Position numbers and translations under genes: made by a program
Part shown: piece after piece, positions 32,122 through 56,381 of the stretch
Layout of the letters: each line of letters begins with the position of its first letter
Numbering within the stretch: position 1 is the stretch's first letter
Notes under the pieces: generated by a model
The model's input: the letters and a program-made list of their open reading frames with translations, nothing else
What the model was told of the DNA's origin: nothing
Database searches by the model: none
Assembly (NCBI GenBank): GCA_963969345.1
Contig: OZ017767.1
Span: 2,666,001-2,730,000 of the forward strand
DNA: 64,000 nt
DNA from: Turbatrix aceti
Taxonomy: Eukaryota > Nematoda > Chromadorea > Rhabditida > Panagrolaimidae
Reading direction: 5' to 3'

Positions 32122-32485
32122 AAACAGTCAGATCCTGAAAAAAATGTACATAAAAAATGTTTTAAAAAAAGTTTTGTCAAATTTCTCAAAAAAAACCTCG
32201 GCAAAAAAATCTTCTCCGTGTCGACATCCCAGAACGAAACAAAATCATTCAGGCGCTCACTCGGGAATCGCAGCAAAGTTGACTCGTGCATTCAATTCGC
32301 CCGGAGAATGCAAATTCATTCGCCCTGTTGTGGTAGTTTGCACACGGGAAATAAAAAGAAATGCACTCAAGAAAAACGTGTCATGCAAATTACAAAAAAA
32401 GCAACCCACAAAGCAAAGTTTGGAAGAAAAAACCTTACAGAATTTCTGTGCCATCGTTTATCGATTTTCTACTCCATCTTCTATC

Positions 32486-34745: not shown

Positions 34746-35310
34746 TCATGCCAGGCCACCGGCTGATCCACTGTTCCGCGATTCTGGCTCTTCCTATTTT
34801 CTTCGTTTTTTTTCTACATGTTCTTCTTTTTTTTCTCTTCGATGTCCTCGTCCAACGCATGGTGCTCCGTTCTCCGGTGTTTCCATCAATCTCAAGGTGC
34901 TCCTGGATTTTATCATCTTCTGGGCCTTCCCGCACCTCAATTTCCCTGACAGTACCACACCACTGCTTCTCCTGCAGATCCTATGTCATGTCTCGTGGCA
35001 AAACAGGTCAACCAGTCGTCTTCGAGATGTTCGCCAGTTCAATCGACGGTACGCGTCGATCCTTCCTCGCCGGCCAAGAGGTTTGTATTTTTTTCAAATA
35101 AAAAAATAAAAAAATATCCAGCACACCAGATTTTTTTTATAAAAACCGGATTTTTTACTTCTCAAAAACTGTATTTTTATAACCAATAAAATTTTTTTTT
35201 TGGCCAAATCAGCAACTTGTATATAAAACAATTTTGTAATTCACGTTAATTAATGTTTTTTTTTATTTTCAAGCACCCCGAGGCGGACAGTAAGCATGCC
35301 AGACCACCGG
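34485..35310 (+). repeat. Tandem duplication of the 3' exon and intron of the preceding gene
   Basis: The segment from CGACGGTACGCGTCGATCC (34491), through CGGCCAAGAG, the intron and GCACCCCGAGGCGG (34725) recurs at 35046-35290 with the same donor GTTTGT and acceptor context. Both copies would end the frame in APRGGQ and TAA. The second copy sits in sequence without a long frame, so it may provide alternative 3' exons or be a relic. Confidence 0.75.
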
Positions 35311-35394
35311 CTTGCCTACTGATCTGCGACTCCTGGCTCCTATCTTCTCGTCTCCTGGTTTTTTTTCTTTTTTCTCGCCTTCCTTCCACCACCT

Positions 35395-36021
35395 CGAATT
35401 TCTTTCGGTTAGTTTTTTTTTTATTTTGTATTTCATTTTCGTGTTTTTATCAATATAATTTTTTTCCAATTTTTTTTCGCAATTTAAAAAATTATTCTTT
35501 TTGAATATCGTTCGGCAAAAAAAATAGTTCGGCACAAAAAACTATTTTGTTGTAAACATTTTTTTCACTGTAACTTATAAAGTACTGTAAAAATTATGAA
35601 AAAAATTATGAACGTCCCATTTATTTTCGTGTTTTCATCAATATAATTTTTTTCCATTTTTTTGCAATAAAAAAAATATTTTTTATAAAAATCGTTAAAT
35701 TAGATCGGCAAAAAAAAAATATTTTTGTTGCAAACATTTTTTTCGCTGTAACTTATAAATTACTGTAACATTGTTGTTAGAAGTCGTAAAAACGTAAATT
35801 CAAAAATCCTGGATAACAACAATGGCCAAAAAAAAGTTGGCAGCAGCAGCAGCGCAGTGACAAGAAAAGCAGTGGTTGATTGTGCGGGAGAACTGCGCGC
35901 ACACACAACCATCATGCCAACAAGGGAAAGCGGGGGTATCAAAAAAAGCCTGATCAGGGTTCTCGGCACGAAAATAAAGTTGATGGCAAGAAAAATTTTT
36001 TATTAAAGTTATCTTTTCAAG
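35395..36021 (+). other. AT-rich spacer with repeated TCAATATAATTTTTTTCC motif
   Basis: Contains two copies of a TTTTCGTG…CATCAATATAA stretch (about 35435 and 35620) that recurs near 39795 and 40845. This looks like intron sequence spread by local duplication. No gene seen. Confidence 0.5.
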
Positions 36022-39000
36022 ATGCCATCGAAGAACGACCAAACTTCGAGCGACGCGGCGAATGCCTCCGGGCACCGTCGCACTCCACCCCGCTCGCCAT
36101 CGCCACCTCCTCCAACTGCATCGGCGCGAGCGGGGATGTCGCCTCGGCGACAGGAGTCACCTGGGGCTGAAGATGCCCGTCGGTTTCTGGGTAACCGGAT
36201 GCAGGCGGTGCACTCCGAAGTCCAGGGACTTCAACAAGCAGAAGCCGTCGAAGGTGAGTAACATTTAACTTGTTGTTTTTTTATAAAATCTTGTACAACC
36301 GTTCACGGATGACTTTTTTTTGCTTCATCTTCTGGGAATGGGAAAAAATCCTCAACTATTTTTTTGATCATGATTTTTTTAATAAAAAAATTAATGAAAA
36401 GAAATTTGAAACAACTACGCACCCAGTTTCTGGAATCTAAAAAAAATCAAAAAGTTCGAACTACGGTAGCTTGCGTCACCACAGGCATTTCAACAGTCTG
36501 AAATTACTGCATCCAAAATAATTATCCTCACATCTGTCTGCTACACGCTAATTTTAATTTCTGGAGGCTGTTGCTATCGGAATTTCTTTTTTTTAGATTT
36601 TTTCTTTTTTCCTGTCTTTTTTTTTTAACTTTTTTGAATTTTGCTTGTTCTCAAAGGGGTTGTTCGGAATATTTTTTTGTTTTTTTTATAATCTCTGTTC
36701 TCATCCCCAGCTAACATGATTTTTTTGTTCAATATGTACATCCTGTTTTTTTATTACCTGATTTTTGCTAAATTGATTCCTATTCATGACATTCTCTTGA
36801 CTGAATTTTTTCACTTTCGATTTTCAGTAAAATTCTAATATTTGTTACTCTGCATGTTGTAATGAATTTTTATGCCCGGAGGCTGTTGCTATCCAAATTC
36901 TTTTTTTTTCGATTTTTTACTGTCTTTTTTTTTAAACTTTTTTGAATTTTGCTTGTCTTCAAAAAAGTTGTTCGGAATATTTTTTTTGTTTTTTTTTATA
37001 ATCCCTGTTCTACCATGATTTTTTTGTTCAATGTGCACATCATGTTTTTTTATCACCTGAATTCGAATATTTGTAAATTTATCGTGAATTTTGTCCCCAT
37101 CCGGTCAAAAACAGGCTGTAACTGAACAACATCTCTCCCGTAAAACATTTTTTCATCCAGGACGTTTCTTTTTTTTTGCCAAGTTTTTAGCAATAAGTCT
37201 CGCATTTTGTTTCAAAAAAATTCTGTGATTGTAATTTTTATATAAATTTTACAAAAAAAAATTAGAAAATTTTGTATGAAAAAAATCCTCTGGTCAAAAT
37301 TTTGTAAAAATTAAAGATTATAAAAAATGATTTTGACTTTTTTATGATGAATTTTTTTTTTCAGACGTCGACATGGAGTCGGTCAACGGCGACACCGACG
37401 TCGAGATGGCCGATCTGCAAGGGGACGGCGACGTCGACATGCAATCAGTCGACGGCAACGACGACAACGACGAACACCACCACGAGGAGGGCCATGGCGG
37501 AGCGAGCCGATCGTCCCCGGTAGCGCGCATCTTTCGTGCTGCTGCCGGATCGAGGCTCCGCATCCCGCTTCGGAACCGGCCGGCCTTCAAACCGGTACGA
37601 CCGATGGGGTGCGGGGGCACCTTCGCGGCAGCTCGGGCGTGGCAGGACACGCTCAGGTCCTACCCCGACCCGCGAGGTGCTCCGCCGCCGGCTGCTAGAC
37701 GTACGCGGCCCATCCAACCACGGCATGCTGCCGCTGCGGCCGTTGCTGGCATCCCAGCCAGCTCGGCCAAAGCGAAAGCTGCCGCCGCCGTCGAAGCAGC
37801 GCCTGGCCCCTCCTCATCCGTCGTCGTCCCCCCTGCCACAACGGTCGTTTCCGGCGACCACGTCTACCTCCGCCGGCCTCGCTCCTCCTCCACGGAGCCC
37901 CCGGCAAAGAGGCGGCGTGTGTCTGCCGACGTCGACAACGACATCATCGAGCCCCTCCGCTTGCTGAATCTTGGCAGCGGAGTCAACACCGGCGGCTCGA
38001 ACGACGGAGAGGTCCTGCGTGTGGCACCGCAGGTCCCGGCGGAGCAGGCCTCTTCCGTCATCCCGGCTGTGGCAGAAGAGCCAACATCGTCCGAATCGGG
38101 CCACGACGACGACGATGCAGCCGGAGATGACGAAGCCGAAGACGATGAGAATGCCAGCGTCGACGCGGAGGATGATGCCGAAGCTGGTGGCGCCGACCAC
38201 AACGAGGAACTCTTCTACGTTCCACCGCCGCCAGCTGACGCGTCGAGCCGACTTCCTGAGGCTCTCCTTCGGGGTCCGTTCATCCCGCCGTACGTCCCGT
38301 CCGCGTACAACTGGAACATTCTCCAGTACGCGTGGACGCGGTTGTACGATGACAACGGCGACCTCATCGTCAACTCGCCAGTCAGAGCCCAGGTGATTCT
38401 TCACCGCAGCGAGGAAACGGGCGATGACTATGACGAGAACGGCGACGTCATCCCGCCAGAGGTCGAAGCACCGGCCGTCCTCGCCTCACCCCGCCCGTCC
38501 GAATCTCAGGGTGGCGAACCGGTGGCCGACGTTCTGTTCGCGGCTCCCGACAATGTCGTGGTAGCCTACGACGCCATCGTGGAAGACGTCGGTCACTGGG
38601 AGGACGGAGCCGGCTTCGACGGCGAAGCATCCCTCGGCGACGTCAACGAAGCTGTCAACGACGGCGACGACAACGGCAGCGACGAAGACGACGACGAGGA
38701 AGACGACGACGCCCACCCGTTCCCGATGGACGACGCTTGGGTACTCGACGTCGAAGCCATGGAGAACCCCTTTCTCATTGGCGGAGACGTTGAGCCCATC
38801 GTCGTCGACGCCGCTCCTCCCAGCCCCGCGCCCCCGAGTCCCACACCACCACCTCCTCCACAGCCGCGCTACAACTTGCGGCAGGCTCGGCGGGCGCCTG
38901 AACGGCTCAATGTCGTTCACGGCGGGCGGAATCAGCGGTATTCCACGACGGGTGGCGTCTTCGTTGATCGACAGGGCAGGCGACTATGGTATGTTTTTAT

Positions 39001-39188
39001 TTACGCATATTTTTATATTTTTTATATAAATTATTTTTATTTTTTTAATTATTTATAAATTGTATTCGTTTCAAATTGTTTTTATTTTAAAAAATACGCA
39101 AAAAATGCAAAAAAGTAATTTTTCTGAGCCTATAAAATTTTATTACAGTAATTATTAGTACCTTGTTTTATAAAAAGGAATTTTCAGA
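36022..39188 (+). CDS. Large acidic low-complexity protein with RYNLR motif
   Basis: Exons 36022-36253 and 37365-38988, with the stop TGA split across a third exon beginning at 39188, give 618 residues. The ATG follows TTTTCAAG directly. The N-terminus is Ser/Pro-rich; exon 2 opens with three VDM/VEM-type repeats (DVDMESVNGD, DVEMADLQGD, DVDMQSVDGN). Strongly acidic runs lie around residues 320-355 and 500-525, with a compact PFIPPYVPSAYNWNILQYAW segment between. A KRRRVS patch suggests nuclear location. Near the end PRYNLRQARRAPERLNV resembles the gene at 32486, so the two may be distant paralogues. No family recognised; the position of the stop depends on the 38989 donor, otherwise the frame ends at 39058. 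Confidence 0.7.
36565..37065 (+). repeat. Tandem duplication inside the first intron
   Basis: About 200 bp beginning GGAGGCTGTTGCTATC occur at 36565-36765 and again at 36880-37062, about 315 bp apart, with scattered changes. Purely intronic. Confidence 0.75.
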
Positions 39189-39981
39189 AGCAAGAATTCC
39201 GCCCACCTCTGCTCATTTGGCTTCTCCGCTGTCCGAGCATGTGGCAAGTTCTCTTCATCAAGCCTTTCATCCGGTTGCCTGTCCTGTCATCCACTCTTTC
39301 GACCATGGCAAGTCCCCGACTGAACACACCTGCACCGTCCATCCACTCAAGCAGGAACAACATCAGCGGACGACTTTCTTGCCAGGTTTCTTTTCCCACT
39401 CATTCCTTTCCACGATCTCGAAAAGCTCAACTGTGCATCCCGACTGCAAATCCAATGGCCTCCGAACAAGCGAATCGACTCGGATCTGCCTCCTCAACGC
39501 CAGCAGTCCGACAACGGTCAATTTCACCCCGGATTTGCGCAGTCATCGAAACGCAGTTTTTGCACTGACGAAACGAAACTCCCGTGCTGACATCTCATTT
39601 TTGCATCTGACAAACCGACGTTGAATCCTGATACATCTTCCTCGACATCGGGAACTCAAAACGACGCCAAGCACTCCGACAATGGGCACTCAGACGCCAA
39701 CAGTCCGACAATGGTCCATTTCGGAAGCCCAGATGCCAAGGAGAACACCCAAATTTTTTTTCGGTTAGTTTTTTTCTCATTTGATTTTTTATTTTCGTGT
39801 TTTCATCAATATAATTTTTTTTCCATTATTTTTGCAATTAAAAAAAATTATTTTTCATAAAAAAGGTTCAATTATTTCGGCAAAAAAAACTATTTTTGTT
39901 GCAATATTTTTTTCTACTAAAAAAATTGTGAAACCGAGTATAAGAAGATTTTATATACATTTTTTTATGATTTTTTTTCAG

Positions 39982-41405
39982 AAGCGAACCAAGCCAAAGC
40001 TGTCTACCCCGACTGGAAGCCGCCAGGTACCGATGGAGCCTCGATCGATGACAACGACACGCTCCGCTTCCTTCCAAACACCTGATCTGCGGTTTTGCCA
40101 GAAATTCTGTGGCCGATCCATTCGGGAGACCAGAACCAAGCCTTGCAGCCTACGATACCGACTCTGGGTTTTTTGAAGACGCACTCGCTCGAGAAGTTCG
40201 CGTGCCATCCCAGTCACTCATGAACAAGCACATCCAAGCAATCGTTTCACGCCAATGAAGCCAAATGCAGATGAAATGTGTACCATGGCGCGGTCGTTGT
40301 GCTGCCAGGAATCATTTTTTTCCCTCAAAAGTGAGTTTTTTTCAGATTTTTTTTATAAAAACTTTTTTGGGAGCTAAAATACAATTTTACATGGGTTCAA
40401 AAATCAGTAAAAAAATTATAACGCGAAAAAAAACGTTTTTTATGTTTTAGGAGCTGGATCGAACGAAGCCAGAAGGCAATTCTTGATTTTTCCGTGACAA
40501 CCCAATTCCGTGCTACAATCCCGATATTCTCGCCTCAAGATGGGAAACAGTGATACCGGATCAAGCCTGTCCAGAAAAAGCTCCTCAAACAAGATCGATT
40601 TGACGCGATTTGAGGCCTCCAGGAAGCCACTGGGTTTTTTGAACACAAATGCACCCGCTCGAAATTCGCTGAGGAATTCCACACGCCAACGACAGTCTCG
40701 CATACCACCTAGCCAAGATTTGAACCGGTGTCAGCGATTTTGGGCAGAGGCTCTGCTCATCCTCAAGCTCGTTTCCGGATGCCCAGATGCCAAGGGGGAA
40801 ACGAAAAATTTTTTTGGTTGGTTTTTTTCTCATTTTGTATTTTATTCATCAATATAATTTTTTTCTAATTTTTTTTGCAATTAAAAAAAATTATTTTTTA
40901 TAAAAATTGTTAAATTAGTTCCGCAAAAAAAACTAATTTTGTTGCAACATTTTTTTCATGCTAAAAAATTTTTATTTTTCGTACTAAAAAAAATGTGAAA
41001 CCGAGTGTAAAAGTGTTTTATACAAAATAATGCGCTGTTACATTTTTTTTTCATTTTTATGATTTCTTTTCAGAAGCGAACCAAGCCAAAGCTGTCTACC
41101 CCGACTGGAAGCCGCCAGGTACCGATGGAGCCTCGATCGATGACAACGACACGCTCCGCTTCCTTCCAAACACCTGATCTGCGGTTTTGCCAGAAATTCT
41201 GTTGCCGATCCATTCGGGAGACCAGAAGCAAGCCTCGCAGCCTACGATACCGAATCTGGGTTTTTTTGAAGCCGCACCGACTCGAGAAGTTTGCACGCCA
41301 CCCCAGTTACCCATGAACATGCACATCATCCAAGCAATCGTTTCACGCCATTGAAACCGATGAAATGTGCCCATGGCGCGGTCGTTGTGCTGCCAGGAAT
41401 CAAAA
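39982..41405 (+). repeat. Duplicated exon-like islands, about 1.09 kb apart
   Basis: 39982-40330 and 41074-41405 begin with the same AAGCGAACCAAGCC after TTTTCAG and stay nearly identical for about 180 bp, then diverge with small gaps and end at the same CAAAA/GTGAG donor. The island between them (40451-40817) is different. Confidence 0.85.
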
Positions 41406-41519
41406 GTGAGTTTTTTTGCACACAAATTAGAATTTTTTTATAAAAAATTTTTTTGGAAACCAAAATTCGATGTTGCAAAAAAATGGTAAAAAAAATATTA
41501 TGTGAAAAAAAACGTTTTT

Positions 41520-43035
41520 ATTTGGTTTCCTATCAAAACAAATGGTTTTCAAAATTTTATTTGTTGTTTTTTTAAAAGTGGATTTTGTTTTAGGGTATTT
41601 GTGGCGACCAACCTGCATTCCATGTGCCCGATTTGAAAATCCAGCACTCTGTCAGACGATACGGTGTCATGAGCGCAAATTCCACCACGACGTCAGCATG
41701 CCATGATGTCACCCCGATTATTCCGCTCCACCATCGCGAAAAACTGACAAGCAGCCGCCCGAAGCACCCCAGCAACCACTCGCTCGAGAAGCTCGCTGCC
41801 GCTCATTTCTCAGGCCATTTGACGTTCGGGAAGAAAGGTCTGCTCCCCCTCAAGCCCCTGAACAACGAGAACATTGCTCGCTTATTTCGATGCCGACGAC
41901 GCTCAGCGATTCCGGCAAGATATCAGATTTGACATGGCTCGCACTGCCTCGCTCAACAGCACGACGTGAAGTCGATTTAATCAATTTTTGGCCATTTTCT
42001 GACACCACCTGCCGATTTTATATTACAACGCCTGCCGAAGCAGTTCACACTGCGATACTGCAACAATTGCAGCCTCGAAATCCAGGCATACTCGGCCAGG
42101 AGTTGTTGGTGTATTTTTTTGTGAGTTTTTTTCGGACACATTTTTTGAAAAAAAAAGTCATTAGAATTTATTTTCGCACGTTAATTTTTTTTTACGTCCA
42201 AACCAAAAAAAAGTTGTACATACCACAAAATTTAAAATGTTGGGCACATATTTGAATTTTTTAATAACAATGTTTTTTTGGAAACCAAAATTCAATTTTG
42301 CAAAAAAGGGTAAAAAAATTTTTTTGCGAAAAATACGTTTTTATTTGGTTTCCTACCAAAACAAATAAATAATTTTCAAAATTTTATTTGTTGTTTTTTA
42401 AAAGTGGATTTTGTTTTAGGGTATTTGTGGCGACCAACCTGCATTCCATGTGCCGATTTGAAAATCCAGCACTCTGTCAGACGACACGGTATAAAGAGCG
42501 CAAATTGTTACCCAGCGCTTCTACCAGGACATCAGCACGCCAAAAAACTCGCCGGAATGACACCCCGATTGCACCTCATTACTTTCGAATGAAACAGACA
42601 AGCAGCCGCCAGATGCACGTGGCTAGCTCAGCAAGCACTCGCTCGAGAAGCTCACACTGCAGTCCCCGTGATCCACAGATTTCTCATGCCATTGGACGTT
42701 CGGGAAGGAAGGAAGGTCTGCTCACCCTCAATCAAGCCCCTGAACAACGAGAACATTGCTCCGCTCATGTCGAGTTGCATTTGATGCCGACGACGCCGGC
42801 GATTCCAGAGGACATCGGATTTGACACGTTTCGTCTCCGTGCAAGAATTTCGCTCCCCACACTGCCTCACAGTCCGACATGAAGTCGATTCAAGCAAATT
42901 TTGGCCATTTCCTGACACCACCTGCCGTTCCTGGATTACAAACCCTGTCGAAGCAGTTTACACTACCATACTGCGCCCATTGCGGCCTCGAAATCCATAA
43001 CATATCCGGCCAGGCGTTGTTGGTGAATTTTTCAT
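41520..43035 (+). repeat. Duplicated exon-like islands, about 0.83 kb apart
   Basis: 41594-42120 and 42420-43035 start GGTATTTGTGGCGACCAACC after TTTTGTTTTAG, share much of their length (for example CCCTGAACAACGAGAACATT) and end near the same donor. The preceding introns are also duplicated. Insertions and deletions not in threes argue against coding selection. Confidence 0.85.
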
Positions 43036-45959
43036 GTGAGTTTTTTTTCGGACACATTTCTTGGAAAAAAAAATTTGGAATTTTTTCGCATGTTTAATTT
43101 TTTTACGTCCTGAATTTAAAAATTAATTAATTTAAAAATTACAAAAAAAACAAATTAAAAAAATTGTAAATAAATACCACAAATTTTAAATTCGTAATAA
43201 CAGCAAAAATTTTTTTATATAAAGACATTTTTTATTACCTATATTTTTTTTCAAATTTTCACCCAGGATGTTTTTCAGAGCCTGTCAATAGCTTGCTCCG
43301 CATCCCGTTTGCCGTGCCAGATTTGCAAGTTGTCAGCAGACGATACGGCACAACTTGTGGACCAATCGCGTGCTTCTACCAGGATGTTAGCATGCTGCTA
43401 GCATTCGTTCAAGTACGAATGTCACCCGGTTTTCCCGCTGCAACAATTTTTTTCGCCAAAAAAAGCAGCTACGCGGATACCTCAGCAACCACCCGCTCGA
43501 GAAGAACCGTTGGCATATTATTTGTGTAAGTTTTTTTCGACGTATTTCTTGAAAAAAAGTTAAAAAAATTTTTCGCAAGTAAAAATTTTTTTCTGTCCTG
43601 ATCGTTAAATAATTTGCACAAAACAAAACCCAAAAACGTACCACACATTTTAATTTAGCAATCAAAGAAAATTTTTTTTAATAAAAAAATATTTTATTAA
43701 AACCTATATTTTTTCTATTTACCTGTATTTTTCAGAATCGATATTGGGAACCATGCAGCTGTCCACACCGGCAACATTTTCTAACCCGGCAGAAAGCTAG
43801 CAACTACTGGTGTCACCCCGTGCAACGACACATTCATGACGACGACTTTGAATGCCCAATTTTTGGTGGGCCTTGTCGCGACGACCATTCCAATCACTCG
43901 AACACCTGAGTTGAATGGCGTCACCGGATTTTGTCAGCAACATGCAGACTGACAACTAATACGAAAATTCACAGGCATTAGGTTGGTTTTCAAGAATTTT
44001 TTTTCATTTCATAAAATTTTTTCACACCAAAAAAATTAAAAAAATTGAAAAAAAATTTTGGAAATTTTTTTTTTGGAAAAAGAAATTTTAAAACTACGTA
44101 ATTATTTTTTTATTTTGATTCGCAAAAAATCTCAAACAGCAATGAGTTTGTATTTAAAAAATGGATGTAAACAAAAACACACATTTTTAATTATACAAAA
44201 ATTATTTTTCAAAAAACGCTTTCATTTTTTTTTAATGTTATCCTTTTTTAGCAGATACGAAAGGAGATCTTGACTGCTCCAAAAAAAAAACTCACAACGG
44301 CAACCGATGGCCAAATCACACCAAGTTCACACTCCAAGGCTTAAAATGCGGATGCTCATCCATCACCCAAGTTACGACGTTTTATCGTTTCAAGCCAAGA
44401 TGGCGTTTTGGTACAACGGCAGAAATCCTTTTCAACATAGCCGATACCAAAAACGAGCACCGCGACTGACACCTGATTTTGTCACTGCCGAAACCTGTCA
44501 ACAGCTAACGACAGCAAATTTGAGGTACGTTTTCAGCAAAAAAAATTATAAAAAATAAATTGAACCGTTTTTTATGAAAAAAGTTTTTCTTCAAATTTTT
44601 ATAATTTTTTTTCAAAATGCAGAACAAAAAAAATTCTCATAAAATTTTTAAATAAATATTTTTTTTTTATTTATTTACTGATTTTATAAAAATATCAATG
44701 AACATAAAAAAACTAATTTCGGACAAAAACATTTAACTAAAATTATTCTCAGATTTTTTTCAAAATAAGCTTTTTTAGTGAATACCGACGAGGTGAAGAC
44801 AATTCTATGGCCAAACTACCACCTACGCTGAACACTGCAGTCAAGCCACACAACGCTGCCCGGACAATTTACCTTTTACGCGATTTACACCCGACTTGGA
44901 GCCCCGTCAACTCCAGAAATCGCAAAATCAATTGTGAGCGAGCAAAAACCGGCACTAGCAGATAAGAAGCAGCGCAAAGACAAACCGAAATGCATGGGCA
45001 TGTGATTTGGGGTATTGCCGAATCCTGTCAACTCTGAGGCAACCCCACGCACGGAAACTCATACCCAGACCGTCAAAATCGCTGCCCATGCCAAGAATTT
45101 CCTCTCACGCGATACAAGTTCGACTTGGAGTCCGCTGAGCTCCAGAACATCGCAAATCAAAGCAGTCAGGTGCAGTGATCGCGAGTCCGACATGACCCAT
45201 CACGTAAGAACGCCCTGCTAGCTACGACGACAACTACCGTAGTCAGAGTATCAAGGAAGCAGATGACCGAAACCACGATGGCATCGTGAGTGGCCTGCCC
45301 GATACTCAAGCGAACACGCCTGCGTCCAGTCATCGCAATACCATGACTACGGTGACACCGAACAATCCAGTTCGTCACCAGAGGCAACAACACCCCCTTC
45401 ACAGGTTGTTGCCTCGGACCAGGCGTCGCAGATACGTCCACGATTTTTCCTCGAGGTTCGTTTTTTTTTACAAAAAAAGTTTTATAATATAATTTATTGG
45501 AAAACTAAATTCTTTATTTAAAAAAAAATTTGGAAAACTAAATTCTTTATTTAAAAAAAATTTTTGAAAAACTAAATTATTTTATTAAAAGAATATTTCA
45601 TATACTATAAAATGCTTTTTTTTAAAAAAATTATTTTGATACCTTTTTTATAGTTCAAATTTGTTAAATAAAAATTGATTGTTGAACAAAAATTTTTTTC
45701 ATCCATTTTAATTGAATATTTTTTTTCAGATCGGCTGTCCGTTCATGGACATCCCATTCCCGTCCGCCAGGCAAGCACGCGACGGGAGTCCACGTCAGCC
45801 GATCCATCCAAGCCGTCAGCAGCGATCAAGTGACTCTGATCCGCGACGCACGGGCCGAGGCACCTAAGCCAGCCCCGAGGTAGGCTCGTATCGGTTTTTC
45901 TCAAAGTGGGAGGGTCGTGCTCATATAGGAGGGGGTTCTTGCTAACAGCTTATATAGGT

Positions 45960-46029
45960 GCCCGGATGCGCATTTGTGACTGGCTCAACCCTGGGTCAGT
46001 CACCGCCCCTGCGACGTCGGGCTTTTTTT
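45960..46029 (+). terminator. Nested hairpin followed by seven T
   Basis: GCCCG (45960) pairs with CGGGC (46018-46022); inside, GTGACTG (45976) pairs with CAGTCAC (45997-46003), and GCGCA faces TGCG. TTTTTTT follows at 46023-46029. The shape is that of an intrinsic or Pol III-like terminator; in a nuclear genome the function is unknown. Confidence 0.5.
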
Positions 46030-46079
46030 ATTTATTGAACGTGCATTTATTAGTATCTTATGATTATTTGTAAAAAAAC

Positions 46080-46118
<39 letters not shown>

Positions 46119-46160
46119 AAAAAAAAAAAAAAAAAACCAAAAAAAAACAGAAAAAAAAGA
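46080..46160. repeat. Poly(A)-rich simple sequence
   Basis: Nearly pure A with a few C, about 65 bp, between two structured segments. Could be a retroposition tail or assembly-sensitive simple repeat. Confidence 0.9.
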
Positions 46161-46278
46161 GCCTATAATGCCACCAGAAAAAAAAGTGCAAAAATGCCAA
46201 AAAAAAAAGAGCCATAACAAGGGCCAATTTTCTGTCTAGCAAATAGACAAAGAACGGCGGTGGATGGTAGTCAGCCAT

Positions 46279-46542
46279 GGTCGAAAGACCGACCACCGGA
46301 GCATATTAGCCGTGCATTGTTAACGGACGCTCCGGTGGTTCCACCGGGCCCCCCATGGATGACGGGGGCCCAGGCAATTTCTTCGGAAGTTGCCAGCCGT
46401 TAGATGATCGCTGTCCTTCCCGGGCGGCGTCGCCATTCCCGCCCGGTCGACTAGCGGGCTGCCTCGTGGCCCGCTGCTCTCGGAGACGTCCAATAATTTT
46501 GGCCGCCTCCGAGGGCAATCCGTGCAGCGACATCGACTAATG
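46279..46542 (+). ncRNA. Run of seven consecutive hairpins
   Basis: Successive stems: GGTC/GACC with GAAA loop (46279-46290); ACCACCGGAGC/GCTCCGGTGGT (46292-46339) with CCGT/ACGG inside; GGGCCCCC/GGGGGCCC (46346-46371); GGCAATTTC/GAAGTTGCC closing a TTCG loop (46373-46394); CCGGGCGG/CCGCCCGG (46420-46446); AGCGGGC/GCCCGCT (46453-46475); CTCGGAG/CTCCGAG (46479-46513) with CCAA/TTGG inside. GNRA and cUUCGg tetraloops are classic RNA folds. The segment ends at a donor ATG/GTAAGT (46543), so it appears to be part of a spliced transcript. No protein frame is convincing. Confidence 0.6.
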
Positions 46543-46596
46543 GTAAGTTATCTGGGAACATTTTGGAACGACTAATCCGCATTTTGTCTTTTGCAG

Positions 46597-47035
46597 ACAA
46601 CCGCCTGACCAGCGAAGAGGCTTAGGCTGCTAGTCAGCCTTCCTGCCTGCCCGACGCGGTTTCAACTGCCGCACAGGGCCGCCACCACACGAGGCATTGG
46701 ACCTGAAGAGAATCGGTCCAATGCGTGGTAGTATTTTTCTATCTTTTTTGAAGGTATGTTTCTTTGAATTTTTCAAAATCAGAAAATAAAAGTTGTTGTT
46801 TTTTCAGACGCAAGGTCACTAGATCAACATCATTCTTCACTTATTCATCATCATCTTCAACAAAAATCACTCAATCATCCATCATCATGAATCAAAATTG
46901 GAGCGACATAGTCGCTCCAATTAGCGGGCCCAGTCATCCCAGACTGCCCCCGCCGATGCGCCAGCGTCTTCACTTCAAAACAGCAAGAATCCAAACTTGC
47001 AGCGCATCTCGGAAACGAAGTGCCATCCAAAATGG
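46597..47035 (+). ncRNA. Spliced exons each with a long hairpin
   Basis: Exon-like 46597-46753 (after TTTTGCAG, before GTATGT) holds GCATTGGACC/GGTCCAATGC (46694-46724, 10 bp). Exon-like 46808-47035 holds AATTGGAGCGAC/GTCGCTCCAATT with a three-base loop ATA (46896-46922, 12 bp). No sustained frame. Confidence 0.55.
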
Positions 47036-47092
47036 GTAAGTAAAAAATTGGGGTCGGTGTCCAGAGCTTCTAATCAGAAATTTTACTTTCAG

Positions 47093-47746
47093 ATGTAAGT
47101 CGCTTCTCCCTTCCACGTCTGGTTTGGGATCCTTCAACTCTCTTCAACTCAACATCGTCGCAAAACCCACCGCAGCCAGCGCCGATGATCTTCGGATCAT
47201 ACAGGGGCCACCGAGTGTCCCACAAATGGCACGTCGGCCGGCGCTGGCTGTCCGTCTATGGTGGCAATTTCCCTTTGTTTCCCCCTATCTGTATAATTTT
47301 CCCTTTTGTGTCTGCTAACAATCAGGCACTCCCGGCGTCGCGCGCTTTCCTGGGCACCACTTAGAGCACCTAGCATTACCTCCCTCCTGAGCATGACCCA
47401 AACACACCCGATACGAGCTGAGTCCCCAAAATTATGAGAGGAGAGGAAAAATGTGGAAGCATGATTGATATCAGCGATATGCGCCGATCTACGCCTCCGT
47501 CGACCATTGGCAATCCTGCCTCCGGAGCAGCAGTAGTGGCGTCTCGGTGGTTGCAACCTTCTCTGCAGCCACCGAGCAATCTATGGGCCTCGCCAGCCCA
47601 CCAACTACGAACGAGGTGATGGCACCCAGAAGAATAAGCCCATCACCTCACGTAGACGATTCCGGCGGCACCTTCTAGGCGACGAGCAGGCACTTTTTGC
47701 CGTCAATCGCTCCAAAGTCGCCAGCTGCACCGTAGAAGGGTTACAG
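47093..47746 (+). ncRNA. Structured exon-like island, family copy 1
   Basis: Starts after TTACTTTCAG and ends at GGTTACAG/GTAGGT. It includes hairpin CTCGGTGGTTGCA/TGCAGCCACCGAG (47543-47576, 13 bp with one G-T) and GAGGTGATGG/CCATCACCTC (47613-47649, 10 bp). These correspond to hairpins of the islands at 47931 and 48538, with paired substitutions. A second part (CCTTCTAGGCGACGAGCAGG) recurs at 48410. Confidence 0.6.
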
Positions 47747-47930
47747 GTAGGTAAAATATTTTTTATTTCAAATACAAAGTAAAAAATTGACATTTTATTT
47801 TTCGGTAAAAAATCCATTTTTCTACTAATTTTGTTGAAAACATTTTTATCTACGAAAATCAATTTTTTAATAAATTTTTATTCAAATGTTTCATTCCGTC
47901 CACAAACTAATCGTTGCCATTCTTTTCCAG

Positions 47931-48167
47931 GAAACGAAACATACCTGCACCCCGTGCCGACCGATGAAAAGACCCCGGCGGCAACCCATGCTGCCGCTCA
48001 AATGGCACAACGCCGGGGCAGCAACGGCGTCTTGGTGGCTTCAACACTGCTCAGCCACCAAGAATCCATGGGCCTCGCCAGCCCGATCGACTACAAAAGA
48101 GGCGATGGCATCTGAATAAGCCCATCGCCTCGTGTAGAACACGCGGCGACCAGATAAGCGCACTAAG
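47931..48167 (+). ncRNA. Structured exon-like island, family copy 2
   Basis: Starts GAAACGAAAC after TTTTCCAG and ends at CTAAG/GTAATT. Three stems: CCCCGGCG/CGCCGGGG (47973-48018), TCTTGGTGGCT/AGCCACCAAGA (48030-48063) and GAGGCGATGG/CCATCGCCTC (48099-48131). Against copy 1, C-G becomes T-A in the second stem and T-A becomes C-G in the third, both preserving pairing. Confidence 0.65.
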
Positions 48168-48537
48168 GTAATTTTTTTTTATCGGTGCCAAAATCGAATT
48201 TTTTTAAAAACTATATTTTTCAAATAAAAAATTTGCCTATTCTAAATTTTTAAATCTTTTTTAATTTTTTTATCCATTCCTCAAATCCTAAAAAAATTTT
48301 ACTAAAAATGTGAAAACAAAAAAAAATTAAATTCTGACTTTTATAATTTTTTGTAGGTGCCTGATGACCAAGTCATCCAACGCCCACCGTAGGCGACGTT
48401 TCCGGCGGCCCCTTCTAGGCGACGAGCAGGCACTTTTGCCACCAATTGCTCTCAACTCGCCCATAACACCTTAGAAGGATAACAGGTTGGTCAATTTTTT
48501 TATTTCCACACAAACTGACCCCTCTTATTTTTTGTAG

Positions 48538-48768
48538 GCTACGAAACGTCCCTGTTCAAGCGCCGACCGACGAAAAGACCCCGGCGGCCATCAGCTTCGA
48601 GCGGAATTAAAGTGCAGTACCCTATGCTGCCGCTCGAACGATGGCCTCCTATGCCGGGGCAACAACGGCGTCTTGGTGGCTTCAACTTTGCCACCAAGAA
48701 ACCATTTATGGGCCTCGCCAGCCCGATCGACTACAAACGAACTCAGGATGACCTGTAAATGCACTGAG
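48538..48768 (+). ncRNA. Structured exon-like island, family copy 3
   Basis: Starts after TTTTTGTAG, ends at CTGAG/GTAATT. Its first hairpin is a long nested one: CCCCGGC/GCCGGGG (48579 and 48653), GGCCATC/GATGGCC (48586 and 48640), TTCGAGCGG/CCGCTCGAA (48596 and 48630), together 23 pairs. The second is TCTTGGTGGC/GCCACCAAGA (48671-48699). It is longer than copy 2 because of an insertion that itself pairs. A smaller island 48357-48485 lies before it. Confidence 0.65.
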
Positions 48769-48967
48769 GTAATTTTTTTATCAGTTTAGTGAGTTTTGAG
48801 CAAAAATCGAGTTTAATTAGTTCGTGGATTTCTTTACTTGTTTTCAAAAAAGATCTACAAATTTATCTGTTCCAATTTCGGTTGCATTTATCGTTCTGAC
48901 CGCAAACTAATCACTGCTATTTTTTTCAGGAAACGAACGTACCTCACTGCAGCGGTCAACTTCGACT

Positions 48968-49140
48968 TCAAAAAAAAAAAAAGTAAAACCAAAAAAAAAA
49001 AAAAAAAAGTAAAACCAAAAAAAAAAAGTAAAACCAAAAAAAAAAAAAGTAAAACAAAAAAAAAAAAAAGTAAAACAAAAAAAAAAAAAAGTAAAACCAA
49101 AAAAAAAATGCCTAAAAAAAAAAAAAAGAAAAAAAAATTT
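48968..49140. repeat. AGTAAAACC / poly(A) simple repeat
   Basis: Repeats of GTAAAACC separated by A-runs of 8-15. Frames through it give only Lys-rich junk. It interrupts the island that begins at 48930. Confidence 0.9.
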
Positions 49141-50040
49141 TAAAAGATAAAAAAAAGAAAAAAAGTAAAAAAAAAGAGCCATACAGGCCACCCCTTCTTC
49201 GACACCGCACTTTACTACACCGACTACTATCATCGTCACGTGCTTCCAGTCCAGTCCTTCGAAACACTACTGGACTGGACTCCCATTCAATCAAGCGCTA
49301 CCTTCCATGAACTCGATCTGCATCATCCAGTGATCCAGTTCCTCTTCATGCAACAGCCCTTTTTTCGAACTTGAAGGTTGGTTTTTTATACAAAAAAGTT
49401 CAAGATTTTTGAAAAAAAAGTGAAACTGAAAAGTAAAATCCTTTTTCAATTTTTTACTTTGCCTACATGATCATATTCCGATCGCTTTTGTTCACAAAAA
49501 CAAAACCACCCAAAATTTTATAATAAATGCAGAAAGCAATTTTTTGCTTAATTTTTTGTTCCTTTTTTTATGTAAATAAAAATTTTGCAGGTCTGAAAAT
49601 CCGACATCTTTCTTCCAAATTCCCGAAAAACTGAACACACCCGTATCCAATGAAGATCTTCATCAACTCGCTTCCTTCAACTTTTCTCTACATTGGCAAC
49701 AAGTTTATCCAGCGTATCACCGAACAGCAAATCGGAACATTGCTGCATCTCATGTCATCTACCTCAGCTGCGACACCTGTACTCGTTCCTGTAGAGTCGG
49801 CACTCGTTCCTGCATCTCATGGCCAAACGGCTTCACTCGGTACGAAACTTGTACCGCTCAACCGACGTTTCTCGCTCTCTGGCACGCTGCAGTTCCCGGA
49901 TAGTTGGTTTAAAGTTCATATTTTGTGTTGAAGAAAATTTTAAAAACTTGAAAACTAAAACTTTTTATCAAAGCTGCCTGCCAGCGTCCAAAACTATTTT
50001 TTAAAATTATTTTATAAAATCACGAAAAATCCGGAAAAAC
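49141..50040 (+). other. Further exon-like islands, no coding frame
   Basis: An island ends at GAAG/GTTGGT (49376) and another starts after TTTTGCAG (49591). No frame is sustained and no strong hairpins were noticed. Probably part of the same transcript. Confidence 0.4.
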
Positions 50041-51440
50041 ACCCGGTCTGGCGCAGCCAGTTTTTCGAGATACCTGTGCGACACCGCTGCGAGACTACCA
50101 CGGCGGCTACCTATTCCGGATCCTCATCAACCGAACCGACCGACTACAACAAAACACGTCCGCGCTATCCGTTGAATAGGACGTACTCATCCCAGTCCTC
50201 GGCGACGACTCAGACTGCTGTCAGGATGGTTTTTATTTATTTTTCCACCTCGTTTTTCTATTTTTTTCCATCTACTCACCTCGACACGCAGAAAACACGT
50301 GTGTACGATTTTTTATTACGATTTTCAAATCATTTTTAATTGCGACTACCAAAACAATACTTTTTCTGAAATTGTTTTTCTAATTTTGGATTATTATTTT
50401 TTTCACGTAACCAAAAAATCCGGAAAATGCCCGGTCTGGCATGGCCAGTCTTTTTAGGCACTTTTAACTGACTTTCTTAATTCCCTGATTCCAAACATGA
50501 CATTTGACACACACCGGCGCCACGAGCCGATCAGATCAGGCTGCTGCGACTCCGGATGCCGTTGGCCCTTGTTTGGCTACTCACTCACGTTTACTACTTC
50601 CTTGCCACTGCAATTCAGGAGGCGTGTTGGTTCGTACACATACTTACAAAAGATTTTTATTAAAACTACTTTTTTCATTTTATTTTTTAATTGCGACAAA
50701 CAAAAACGAGATTTTTTTTGAAATAGTTTTTCTAATCCTGAATTAAAATTATTTTCCACGTAACCAAAAAATCCGGAAAATGCCCGGTCTGGCGTAGCCA
50801 GTCTTTTGAGATACGATAACTATGCCAACCTCATTCACCGGGACACCCTCATGACAACACCATCAACAGTTCGATGACGCTGCCGGCATGTTCCCAATGA
50901 TCTACTTCCTACATCTACTCCTCTTAGCCGCCTACTGCAACTCACTGCTGGTTGGCAAATTTACAAAAGATTTTTTCTTAAAACTAGTTTTTTCAAATTA
51001 TTTCATTTTTTTTAAATTAACTAACACACACATTTTTTTTCGAAATAATTTCTTTTCACATTTGATTAAAATTATTTTTCACGTAATCCCAAAATCCGGA
51101 ATTGTCCGGTCTGACATAGTCAGTCTTTTGAGGCAGATTTATCACCTGTACAACACTCACTACGACCCATTACGGCACCGCTTCCAGCATGCCGGGACAA
51201 CTAATATCGGCAGAGTCAATCACCGAGGACACGTCCTTGAAGCCGCTGAACAGGACGTGCCCTGCAATTTTCCTCGACACACTCACTACTAGTTGGTTTC
51301 ACGCAAGTGCTTAGTTAGACAAAAAAAAATTTTATTTGCCACTTGGAAAACAATTTTTCTCGTAAAAATATTTTTGGCGTAATCACAAAAATCCGGAAAA
51401 CGTCCGGTCTGGCGTGCCCAGTCTTTTGAGGTCTTTTTGC
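50020..51440 (+). ncRNA. Five tandem copies of a CCGG/hairpin motif
   Basis: The motif ATCCGGAAAATGCCCGGTCTGGC with a short hairpin and AGTCTTTTGAG occurs near 50045, 50418, 50770, 51092 and 51390, spaced about 300-370 bp. The hairpin is CTGGC/GCCAG with loops GCA, ATG and GTA in copies 1-3; copy 4 has CTGAC/GTCAG with ATA; copy 5 has only CTGG/CCAG. The loop varies, the stem co-varies, and flanking single-stranded bases are conserved. Between copies the sequence is diverged and AT-rich. No coding frame. Confidence 0.6.
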
Positions 51441-51657
51441 TCACTATCATCCACAAGTCACAGCTATGAATCTGCAACAACATCTACGCACCCGAATCAC
51501 CTTCTCATGTCTGCGACGGCCCCCGACAACTCATCAGAAGCAGCACACCTGTCAACACGTTGCCAGGGCACCAACAGATGCCACCCTGGATCAGCAAGAT
51601 CGACAACGAAGTCGACGTTCATCAAGAAAATGATTTTTTAAAAATAAAAAAAAAGAT

Positions 51658-52070
51658 CCGGCTCTGCCACACGTGCTGAAAAATAAAAAGCTCTGCACGT
51701 GTGGCATCCGGCGGGGTTGATTGGGTGGGCAAGGGGAAGGGGCGTGGGGGGCCCTCCGCCGAAGGAGGGCCCAACAGGGGTTCTCCGGTGATGGAGAACC
51801 TCTCCCTGTTCCCGGTGATGGGGACAGGGATTTTTTGGGGGAGGTGGGGAGAGGGGACGGGGGCGGGTACGGGGGAGGGGGGTGCGGGTGGGGTTGGGTG
51901 CGCGGGGTAGGGTTGGGAGCGCGGGTACGGGTGCGAGTAGAGCTGGGGGCGCGGGCGAGACAGAAAAGCGGCGCAACCTGGCATCTGGGGTGCCCCGTGT
52001 GCTCCAGATGTCGGGTGGGGTGCGCAAAGGAGCAGGGGAGCCCTGAAAAGCCCCCCTGCTCCGTTTTTTT
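51658..52070 (+). ncRNA. Hairpin cluster ending in a terminator-like stem
   Basis: In order: GCCACACGTGC/GCACGTGTGGC (51666-51705) inside CCGG/CCGG; GGGCCCTCC/GGAGGGCCC (51749-51772); GGTTCTCC/GGAGAACC (51779-51800); TCCCTGTTCCC/GGGGACAGGGA (51803-51830), then six T; a G-rich tract (51837-51960); CATCTGG/CCAGATG (51982-52010) inside GCGCA/TGCGC; GGAGCAGGGG/CCCCTGCTCC (52029-52062), then seven T after one G. The third and fourth hairpins share the loop GGTGAT on unrelated stems. GC content is far above the neighbourhood. No open frame explains it. Confidence 0.65.
52053..52070 (+). terminator. T-run after the last GC-rich stem
   Basis: A 10-bp perfect stem (52029-52062) is followed by GTTTTTTT (52063-52070). 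The layout matches an intrinsic terminator and could also end a Pol III transcript. It marks the right edge of the structured region. Confidence 0.45.
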
Positions 52071-52149
52071 ATGTTGAACAAACGAGGAGGAAAACTAGGC
52101 GCGCCGATTTTTTTGAGACATTTGTTGCGTTATAAAGCAGAAATGATGC

Positions 52150-52245
52150 GCTACAACTGTGTTACAATAGCGGCATGGTTGCGTTTTCTTTTTCCCCAAC
52201 TTTAGGCTGTGGTTCAATTCCCCGTCCAGCCAACCTTTTTTTCAA
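52150..52245 (+). other. Possible tRNA-derived remnant
   Basis: GGTTCAATTCC (from 52213) looks like a Pol III B box, followed by a 7-nt tail, CCA-like AGCCA and a T-run. No matching acceptor 5' half (GGCTGGA) is found upstream, so this is at most a fragment. Confidence 0.25.
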
Positions 52246-52542
52246 CTACGAACTTATCTTTTTCAAAGTTTTCCCTCGAATTACTATGTTTTGATTGTTA
52301 TTATTTCGTAAATTCATTTTTCTTTTAATATGTGTCCACACAAACACTCCCGCAAGGTTTTGGCCTACTCCATCGAACTAAAATGTTGATTTTATGTAGT
52401 TGACAAAATTTTCCCCAATTATGCCCTTGATTTGATTGTTAACAAAAAACCGGAACAATTTTAGTAATTTTTTGTCAGTTTAAATTGTCCCTCGAAAATT
52501 GTCGTTTTTTGACTTCCCACTTTTTTTAATAAAAATACTCAC

Positions 52543-52701
52543 ATTTACTGTCGTTCTGCTGGGCTCGTCATCGTAATCATCTTCCACCACCACCACCTCC
52601 TCCACCTCCACCACCACCTCCTCCTCCACCACCACCTCCTCCACCTCCACCAACCACCTCCTCCTCGCCATCGTCATCATCATCGCTGGCGTGTTGAATC
52701 C
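52543..52701 (-). other. Splice-flanked CCACCT microsatellite, possible minus-strand exon
   Basis: On the minus strand this is bounded by TTTTTTTCAG and AAT/GTGAGT. One frame is open throughout and gives Val/Glu repeats ending DDYDDEPSRTTVN; another gives an acidic run and poly-Gly before a stop. An upstream minus segment (ATG at about 52775, donor TTG/GTGAGT) does not join it in an open frame. Could be a short coding exon or expanded repeat. Confidence 0.25.
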
Positions 52702-53446
52702 CTGAAAAAAAATTCACGTACATAAAAACGTTTTTTCAGGAAAAAAACTCACCAATTACCTAAAAATGAAACCATTTGCGTGTTCCAGCGATGAGCCATC
52801 GGTGCCGGTGTGATTTGAAAGTGCCTAAATCCCCCCATCCCTCCCCTCCCCCTACACAAATATCATAAAAATACCCCACAGCACAAAGTTAACAGTATCT
52901 CAACGTGTCAGACGTCTGGCAACAAAAATGCAGCCTAATTCATTAATTTATTTACTTTCGGTACAAAAACGCAATCAAACGTTTAAAAAATGACATAAAA
53001 ACGGAAATTCAAAAAAAAAGGAAACAGAAATGGAAGAAAATGAACGAAAAAACAAAAAGCAGACCGAAAGTGGGATGCACGACACCGCAATACTGTACCC
53101 GCCAAAACTGGCAAAACACGCGGTCGTTCAAAATCGCTGCAGGAGCCCGGCAAAAAATCGTTCTTTCACTTTTATTTGGCAGTACAGTTACTTTTCGTTT
53201 TGTGTGTTTAGTCATTGTTGCATTATTTCACATCCAGTCAAATTATTTATTCACGTCCGGACCCAAAAATATCCGAAAATCATGCTTTTGGTCGAAAAAA
53301 TGACCTGAAAATTTTTTCCGGCTTTTCCGGCCGGCCTAAAAAACAGGCCGGCCGCGTGGCTTTTGTGATCAGCCGGACGGATTTTATGCCTTGGTTATAA
53401 TATTCCAAACGAAAAGGTATAAACAAACTCAACGCGTAAAAAAACT
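52702..53446. other. Non-coding sequence before the assembly gap
   Basis: AT-rich with a C-rich patch near 52830-52855 and a perfect GC hairpin, GGCCGGCCT/AGGCCGGCC, at 53329-53353. No gene supported. Confidence 0.5.
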
Positions 53447-53646
53447 NNNNNNNNNNNNNNNNNNNNNNNNNNNNNNNNNNNNNNNNNNNNNNNNNNNNNN
53501 NNNNNNNNNNNNNNNNNNNNNNNNNNNNNNNNNNNNNNNNNNNNNNNNNNNNNNNNNNNNNNNNNNNNNNNNNNNNNNNNNNNNNNNNNNNNNNNNNNNN
53601 NNNNNNNNNNNNNNNNNNNNNNNNNNNNNNNNNNNNNNNNNNNNNN
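53447..53646. other. Assembly gap (200 N)
   Basis: Exactly 200 N, the usual placeholder for a gap of unknown length. Sequence on the two sides may not be contiguous at this distance. Confidence 0.98.
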
Positions 53647-53739
53647 CATAAAATCCAGGATGTGAAAATCGGTAAAATGTTTGCTGTCATCTTGTAAAGC
53701 ATCAAAAAAGCACTCGAAATCGGTTTCGTGACACTACTC

Positions 53740-54840: not shown

Positions 54841-54924
54841 ACAAACATTGAATAGTTGAAACAGCACATCGTGTCTGAATAAAATCAACGTCATCGACGT
54901 GAAAATGATAAAAACGAGAAAACT

Positions 54925-55353
54925 TCAGAGTTCGGCCTGCTTCGCGGTCCAGGTGCGAGGCTTGTCCAAAGACGTTCTCGGTCGACGATCCGCCTTGGGG
55001 GCCCAAGTGACGTGGATAGGGCAGACTTTTTCTTCCGAGGGAGAAGTGGATGGCGGATGCTCGGGTTTCACGGGGGCGGGGCGGCCCATCGCGGCGTTGC
55101 AATGGATGCAAGTCGTCGGCTCCAGGCTCAGCCGCTGTAGCTTGGCAGGTGGCGCCGATGACGACGCCGTCGGCATGGAGTACCGCCGGTCGGTTTTGTT
55201 GATTTCTCGGACGAGCGTCACCCGCTTGGGGGCCCACGTGATACGGTCCTTGTCCAGGACGACGTCCGATAGACGGGGGGCGTACTCCGGGGTGATGTTT
55301 GAGAGGCGAGAGGGGCGGCGAGGTGTGTCGACGGCAGCGGCAGGAGTTGACAT
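54925..55353 (-). CDS. TWAPK family protein, copy 1
   Basis: 142 residues, single coding exon. TTTTTTCAG ends 23 nt before the ATG. Hallmarks of the family in this window: ITWAPKRVTLVREI (first WAPK), TTCIHCNAAMG (Cys pair), KVCPIHVTWAPKADRRPRTS (second WAPK) and the end TWTAKQAEL. Compared with the 56382 and 62452 copies it has a longer N-terminus and lacks the PAKRLRLEP basic patch (here PAKLQRLSLEP). It lies head to head with the copy at 56382. Function unknown; CxxC might bind a metal but only one pair is present. Confidence 0.75.
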   Translation of the reverse strand: MSTPAAAVDTPRRPSRLSNITPEYAPRLSDVVLDKDRITWAPKRVTLVREINKTDRRYSMPTASSSAPPAKLQRLSLEPTTCIHCNAAMGRPAPVKPEHPPSTSPSEEKVCPIHVTWAPKADRRPRTSLDKPRTWTAKQAEL

Positions 55354-56200: not shown

Positions 56201-56381
56201 TAATTTTTTATCCATTGGCTTAGCTTGCGTTGCATGGCATCGCTTAGCAAGTTCAGTTTGATTGAGCTTTCTGGAGGAATCAATCGATTGTTATAATTCG
56301 TGTTTGCGACTCCGCGCTTATTTTTGCTGTTCATTTTTTAATGGACTATTTTTTTTCAGATTATCAACTTCACTTCACAAC

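What the first reader, a model, noticed from the sequence alone, without database searches (positions are those of the whole stretch)
47543..48699. Paralogous exons with compensatory base-pair changes
Three exon-like islands carry matching hairpins. In one stem CTCGGTGG/CCACCGAG becomes CTTGGTGG/CCACCAAG (C-G to T-A); in another GAGGTGATGG/CCATCACCTC becomes GAGGCGATGG/CCATCGCCTC (T-A to C-G). Paired substitutions between duplicates are the standard sign that RNA pairing is kept by selection, and they speak against a decayed protein gene.
Basis: partly seen in the sequence, partly recalled or inferred. Interest (0 to 1): 0.92.

Follow-up and report, generated by a model that had tools for sequence, protein, structure and literature searches.

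The report
Amplified, spliced, hairpin-built nematode RNA family
A stretch of a nematode-like genome that looks like broken gene exons is better read as a repeated non-coding RNA gene whose exons fold into hairpins that selection seems to keep, and it matches no RNA family in the public library searched.

Summary
The hairpins and both paired substitutions are present at the stated coordinates. The first stem occurs in three islands, the second in two of the three in this window. They belong to a repeat unit of about 20 kb whose 3' half (about 45.4-52.1 kb) is a chain of exon-like, frame-free, mostly strongly folded islands. The best exon (46230-46541) folds at z -9.9, and the one divergent paralogue that I could read (L046) folds alone into much the same layout. 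Fifteen core copies were found: nine of class 1 and six of class 2 (76-78% identity), 14 of them in one 3-Mb stretch of one contig. Against L046, 7 pairs are doubly substituted and kept, versus 1.26 expected (P 5e-5). Stems change three times less than loops. Of 53 indels 12 are multiples of three, versus 22 of 24 in the neighbouring coding exon. A two-hairpin tail motif occurs 80 times in the genome, all at copies or fragments of this unit. No Rfam family matches. Broken pairs exist, RNAalifold gives no covariation bonus on two of three alignments, and there is no RNA data. I read it as a new multicopy structured non-coding RNA family; its scaffold function is inferred.

The parts
46165..46542 (+). 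core structured exon; 5' end approximate, 3' end at donor GTAAGT
   Evidence: z -8.3 sense, -6.1 antisense; donor kept in 9 of 9 aligned rows as GTAAGT, GTAGGT or GTGAGT
46233..46249 (+). hairpin GTCTA/TAGAC
   Evidence: invariant in 9 of 9 rows
46253..46401 (+). domain I: closing stem AACGGC/GCCGTT around a nested junction with a GAAA-loop hairpin, a 12-bp stem, GGGCCCCC/GGGGGCCC and a C(UUCG)G-loop hairpin
   Evidence: MFE and centroid agree; same domain in L046 folded alone; compensated pairs 46299-46332 and 46381-46386
46403..46534 (+). domain II: closing stem GATG-TCGCTG/CAGCGA-CATC around three hairpins
   Evidence: in L046 the closing stem and the middle hairpin are kept, the first hairpin is paired differently in MFE and centroid and the third is shorter; compensated pair 46425-46441
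46597..46753 (+). structured exon with hairpin CATTGGACC/GGTCCAATG (46695-46723)
   Evidence: z -3.6; splice sites, aligned; no two-sided change in the sequence-only alignment
46808..47035 (+). structured exon with 12-bp hairpin 46896-46922
   Evidence: z -6.8 sense, -3.0 antisense; four compensated pairs against L046 in this one hairpin
47093..47746 (+). exon holding island A (stems 47543-47576, 47585-47599, 47613-47649)
   Evidence: 47441-47746 z -4.6, 47093-47440 z -0.7
47931..48167 (+). exon, island B (stems 47973-48018, 48030-48063, 48070-48084, 48099-48131); acceptor read by eye
   Evidence: z -4.8
48357..48485 (+). exon, duplicate of the 3' part of island A's exon
   Evidence: blast of islands; z -3.1
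48538..48768 (+). exon, island D (stems 48579-48659 with nested inner stems, 48671-48699, 48710-48724)
   Evidence: z -5.0
44778..45455 (+). upstream exon with hairpin GAGGCAACAAC (45381-45415); acceptor read by eye
   Evidence: z -4.5 sense, -3.6 antisense
45730..46040 (+). conserved island, weakly folded overall
   Evidence: 45751-46000 is 94-99% identical in 7 of 7 copies; z -1.1
50028..51431 (+). tail: five tandem units with the two-hairpin motif AATCCGGAA..CCGGTCTGGC..GCCAGTCTTTTGAG starting at 50028, 50417, 50770, 51093, 51390
   Evidence: 51 units in 8 copies; 80 genome matches of its first part, control 0
51674..52092 (+). G-rich 3' block with four perfect stems
   Evidence: 51640-51860 z -5.4 sense but -6.6 antisense, 51860-52080 z -1.9; 51751-52000 94-98% identical
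32306..53445 (+). whole amplified unit as seen in the longest copies (not a claim of transposon ends)

Best explanation
The islands are exons of a multicopy, spliced, non-coding RNA transcribed from the + strand. Shown from sequence: GT-AG-bounded islands; no long open frame and frame-free indels; exons that fold far better than shuffles; stems that change less than loops; compensated pair changes between divergent copies; a tandem two-hairpin motif confined to this unit. Inferred: that the RNA is transcribed and spliced as drawn, that each exon is an independent folding module, and that the modules (multi-branched domains I and II, the A/B/D hairpin exons, the tail motif in 5-10 units per class-1 copy read) are docking sites for proteins, so that the RNA acts as a scaffold, with gene amplification raising its dose.
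For: Fold of 46230-46541: -168.3 against -116.5 +- 5.3 kcal/mol, z -9.9. L046 folded alone gives the same domain I and the frame of domain II, z -6.2. 99.5% of 934 cells paired in A1 against 31-47% when partners are slid; two-sided pairs 3 against 0.6 (2 of 500 shuffles reach it) (the structure comes from one of the rows, which favours it). 7 compensated pairs against L046, P 5e-5. Stems 1.4%, loops 4.4%, introns 6.6% divergence in class 1; 12%, 28%, 24% against L046. Indels that are multiples of three: 12 of 53 in seven RNA-exon regions, 22 of 24 in the coding control. 46251-46750 is 96-98% identical in the divergent copy c5051, while the 250-base stretches at 46001, 46751 and 47751 are 81-87%. 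Sense z lower than antisense in 8 of the 10 segments downstream of 44.7 kb with sense z below -3. Tail motif 80 matches, control 0.
Against: No expression data. The junction-closing stems never vary, so they carry no covariation. RNAalifold's covariation term is unfavourable on A1 (+0.89) and A2 (+0.5) and near zero on A3 (-0.08); A2 has no two-sided pair of 51. In class 1 there are 28 distinct broken-pair events against 20 kept ones; many are in long-range closing pairs of island D and at 45766-46022, but some are in local stems (48588-48644 and 48589-48643, C-A). In L046 14 events are broken, 16 kept. In A4, of 5 two-sided pairs only three (30-96, 127-156, 203-236) are sound, and 5 is not above shuffles. 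One-sided kept changes against A-C are 26:14 and G-U against A-C 6:6. Low folding energy is not special to these exons: the coding exon from 37365 has z -6.2 in its first 700 bases. Only one of six class-2 copies could be read.
Confidence: 0.63

Rival explanations
1. Structured untranslated or intronic part of a protein-coding transcript: the folded exons belong to the 3' part of the coding gene at 36-39 kb, or the tail hairpins sit just before 3' splice sites (TCTTTTGAG) and steer splicing.
For: The coding gene (37365-38988, frame kept in 22 of 24 indels) lies upstream on the same strand and is co-amplified. In the 51 tail units the motif is followed within about ten bases by an acceptor-like T-rich stretch ending in GAG, TAG or AAG (the pattern used asks for that ending).
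Against: About 6 kb with eight exon-like segments of ordinary folding (z -1.7 to +2.0, 39982-44524) lie between the coding gene and the folded exons. Tail donors look weak (read, not scored). The strongest structure is in the core exons.
Confidence: 0.16
2. Functional RNA of a mobile or selfish 20-kb element (packaging, priming or maintenance signal) rather than a host RNA.
For: Dispersed copies in both orientations, one on another contig; a 328-bp satellite beside the 3' end in two other copies and as a fragment here.
Against: No significant Pfam match in the 13 open frames of 31-59 kb that I scanned (short exons were not all scanned); copy ends differ between pairs, as in segmental duplication; 14 of 15 cores are in one 3-Mb stretch.
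Confidence: 0.11
3. DNA-level effect: hairpin-templated repair or cruciform-forming DNA makes and re-makes inverted repeats, without a selected RNA.
For: Perfect stems, both arms changing together, and a 6:6 ratio of new G-U to A-C in one comparison.
Against: Templated repair is expected at simple short-loop palindromes (recalled); here nested junctions whose closing arms lie more than 100 bases apart are kept in both classes. Sense strand folds better than antisense in 8 of 10 segments. Conservation follows stems and exon-like islands.
Confidence: 0.07
4. Decayed protein-coding exons with chance hairpins.
For: GT-AG exons; an open stretch from an ATG at 46888 in this copy (read by eye).
Against: 28 stems against 5.6 expected; no stop-free stretch over 151 codons in the three + frames of a 3847-base splice model; that ATG is absent in seven of the nine rows; 41 of 53 indels are not multiples of three.
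Confidence: 0.03

Closest known systems
roX RNAs of Drosophila (recalled, not searched)
   Same: Spliced non-coding RNA with repeated stem-loops, redundant gene copies, copies concentrated on one chromosome.
   Different: No roX box was looked for; families recalled as X-linked in C. elegans (COE and APP) fall on contig C6 and glypican on C4, not on C2, so this cluster is probably not on an X.
Long RNAs tested for conserved structure by covariation (PMC13228351 on HOTAIR, PMC10370758 on the R-scape test: listing and start of abstract seen only)
   Same: The question whether long RNAs keep a fold by selection; covariation is the test.
   Different: Here the fold signal is strong in single exons and seen between paralogues of one genome, without cross-species alignment and without R-scape.
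Rfam families (release 15)
   Same: Compact multi-branched fold with GAAA and C(UUCG)G loops, loop types common in structured RNAs (recalled).
   Different: No family reaches its gathering score in this region; the four matches at E up to 5 are far under their thresholds.

Membership tests
Structured non-coding RNA gene (general kind) | Folding better than composition-matched shuffles | tested here: met
   z -9.9 for 46230-46541; 9 of 11 segments from 44778 to 49376 below -3; the coding exon is also low there
Structured non-coding RNA gene (general kind) | Covariation beyond chance between homologues | tested here: met
   7 against 1.26, P 5e-5; A1 controls passed for paired cells, two-sided pairs and score; not met for the count of two-sided pairs in A4 nor by RNAalifold's term on A1 and A2; one divergent homologue read
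Structured non-coding RNA gene (general kind) | No protein-coding constraint | tested here: met
   12 of 53 indels multiples of three, against 22 of 24 in control
Structured non-coding RNA gene (general kind) | Transcribed and processed | not testable with these tools
   no expression data; splice signals only
Any Rfam family | Score over the gathering threshold | tested here: not met
miRNA or Dicer-type hairpin | Long stem of about 20 or more pairs (recalled) | tested here: not met
   perfect stems found are 8-12 bp
Autonomous transposon | Transposase or reverse transcriptase | tested here: inconclusive
   none in the frames scanned; not all short exons were scanned
Dosage-compensation RNA (roX-like) | Located on and acting on the X | tested here: inconclusive

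The most novel reading that the evidence does not exclude
A previously undescribed class of long RNA built like a modular protein: each exon is an autonomous folded domain, domains are duplicated and reshuffled as exons, and the gene is amplified into a chromosomal cluster beside satellite DNA, where the RNA acts on that chromosomal region as an RNP platform.
Probability: 0.2. Interest if true: 0.87.

Novelty: new variant of a known kind. Interest (0 to 1): 0.65.

Why it matters
Whether long non-coding RNAs keep a fold by selection is disputed for want of strong cases (recalled; cf. listings). Here one compact genome holds at least 15 natural variants of one RNA, in two divergent classes, with exon-sized domains and a frame-keeping coding exon next door as control, so the question can be put to a direct test. 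It would also be a multicopy RNA family absent from the RNA library searched.

Tried and rejected
Protein search with the neighbouring 537-residue reading frame (37373-38983): the 7992 candidates sharing most words were scored, none at E <= 0.001. Pfam on 19 frames of the window: ATG16, HOOK_N and Globin matches only, all upstream of the unit, the first two under the curated cut-off. Rfam at gathering over the window and at E up to 5 over 45700-52300: nothing credible. Telomerase RNA: one CCTAAGCC at 45863 and one GGCTTAGG at 46619 in the window; no longer template was looked for; not pursued. Dosage compensation: made unlikely by markers. A covariance model was built from A2 but could not be run on this genome, and I did not run it on the held loci. 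Papers: passages of PMC8022731 and its section 18; passages of PMC12629237; all others seen as search listings and abstract starts only.

Full report
What was checked. The stems and the two paired substitutions are in the sequence at the stated places. In 43 GC-rich islands of 31.9-53.4 kb there are 28 perfect stems of at least 8 pairs with loops of 3-40, against 5.6 +- 1.8 in 20 dinucleotide-preserving shuffles; 20 of the 28 lie between 45.3 and 52.1 kb. The first stem is in three islands; the second is in islands A and B, and in island D its left arm appears in two of eight copies.

Where it lies. The window is part of a 59.9-Mb, 28-contig genome. T-rich acceptors ending in CAG and 43 matches to the SL1 RNA model, all under its cut-off, a dozen or so of them in a regular array with a 1644-base step, point to a nematode; the name is not known. 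The 1157 bases occur nine times, this one included, at 84-100% identity, eight on contig C2 and one on C5. They are part of a unit of about 20 kb (32.3-53.4 kb here) whose ends differ between pairs of copies.

Two classes. The core exons (45736-47283) find the same nine copies and six further ones at 76-78% over 46144-47141, all six on C2. A search with one of the six finds these 15 and otherwise only four 29-base pieces. Fourteen of 15 lie between 2.1 and 5.1 Mb of C2.

Structure. 46225-46760 folds at -247 against -186 +- 6.7 kcal/mol, z -9.1; 46230-46541 at z -9.9, with MFE and centroid alike: a small hairpin, then two multi-branched domains closed by AACGGC/GCCGTT and by GATG-TCGCTG/CAGCGA-CATC. 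L046, folded by itself, gives the same domain I and the same closing stem and middle hairpin of domain II, z -6.2; its first domain-II hairpin differs between MFE and centroid, and the third is shorter. Islands A, B and D have z -3.2, -3.8 and -4.8. In a table of 30 segments the eight between 39982 and 44524 are not clearly better than shuffles (z -1.7 to +2.0); of the 11 from 44778 to 49376 nine are below -3, the exceptions being 45730-46040 (-1.1) and 47093-47440 (-0.7). The coding gene also folds well on the sense strand (36022-36253 z -3.6; first 700 bases from 37365 z -6.2), so low energy alone is not special. Downstream of 44.7 kb ten segments have sense z below -3; in eight the sense strand is lower than the antisense, and 49180-49376 and 51640-51860 go the other way.

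Covariation. On A1 (9 rows, aligned without structure) 99.5% of 934 cells are paired and three pairs have two-sided changes (shuffles 0.6, 2 of 500 reach three); slid controls give 31-47% and 0-1 pair. The number of further pair types is not above shuffles there. On A4 (24 rows, 23 distinct) 97.0% of 707 cells are paired; five pairs show two-sided changes, which 178 of 500 shuffles reach, while the 25 cells and the score are reached by none. RNAalifold's own covariation term is +0.89, +0.5 and -0.08 on A1, A2 and A3, with 3, 0 and 3 two-sided pairs. Window against L046 over three exons: 7 compensated pairs against a null of 1.26 (P 5e-5), 146 of 157 pairs kept against 139.3 +- 1.5; four of the seven are in the hairpin 46896-46922. 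Against this: 11 of 157 pairs are broken there; the class-1 comparison has 28 distinct broken events and 20 kept ones, L046 14 and 16; one-sided kept changes against A-C mismatches are 17:8 (class 1) and 9:6 (L046), and G-U against A-C 6:6, so the wobble test does not settle the strand.

Constraint. In class 1 stems differ at 92 of 6506 cells, loops at 409 of 9238, introns at 339 of 5125; against L046 42 of 345, 99 of 359 and 39 of 161. The copy at C2:5.05 Mb is 96-98% identical over 46251-46750 but 81-87% in the stretches at 46001, 46751 and 47751. Splice sites at 46542/46597, 46753/46808 and 47035/47093 are kept between the two classes. Among copies 12 of 53 distinct indels in seven RNA-exon regions are multiples of three, against 22 of 24 in the coding exon 37365-38988 used as control (a second intended control gave no usable alignment). 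No stop-free stretch exceeds 151 codons in the three + frames of a 3847-base splice model.

Tail motif. Between 50.0 and 51.5 kb five units, 297-389 bases apart, carry AATCCGGAA-N(4-6)-CCGGT-CTGGC-N3-GCCAG-TCTTTTGAG. In eight copies a blast list and a pattern each gave 51 units, 5-10 per copy; the pattern demands the CTG and CAG arms, so it cannot show a broken one, but the blast list, which does not, is no longer. One unit, in three copies, has CTGAC/GTCAG, a compensated change. The genome holds 80 exact matches of the first part (39 and 41 by strand), none of the reversed control, at copies or fragments of this unit on C2 and C5, including one about 1 kb downstream of five of the six class-2 cores. 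The motif may precede weak 3' splice sites.

Reading. The most economical account is a multicopy, spliced, structured RNA with no Rfam match. A scaffold role is inferred from modular domains and repeated motifs. An X-chromosome role is not favoured: markers recalled as X-linked in C. elegans lie on C6 and C4. DNA-level repair does not easily explain nested junctions and exon-shaped conservation, but without RNA data it is not excluded.

Noticed in passing
window 53447-53721: A 200-base N gap sits where the unit ends, followed by 75 bases of a 328-bp satellite that forms arrays beside the 3' end of two other copies (C2:5.06 Mb, C5:9.41 Mb), and elsewhere on C2 and C1.
   Followed up: partly
G000:C2 5.05 and 5.07 Mb: Two copies face each other in opposite orientation and give identical scores in four searches, with satellite beside at least one of them: probably an inverted duplication.
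   Followed up: no
window 36022-38988: Co-amplified coding gene with an acidic low-complexity protein, frame kept among copies, no Pfam match and no homologue found.
   Followed up: partly
window 39802-43035: Tandemly duplicated exon-like islands and flanks (213 nt at 98%, 126 nt at 87%) without unusual folding.
   Followed up: no
window 52132-52240: tRNA-like B box GGTTCAATTCC followed by a T run inside the conserved 3' part; ARAGORN does not call it.
   Followed up: no
window 46080-46220 and 48970-49190: A-rich low-complexity stretches, both ending in AAAAGAGCCATA and soon GGCC, inside the exon-rich part.
   Followed up: no
window 53261-53400: Dispersed repeat with matches on several contigs, four of them within 55-141 kb of contig starts.
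   Followed up: no
window 54920-56761: 217-base inverted repeat, 96% complementary, in a family of small open frames without Pfam match.
   Followed up: no
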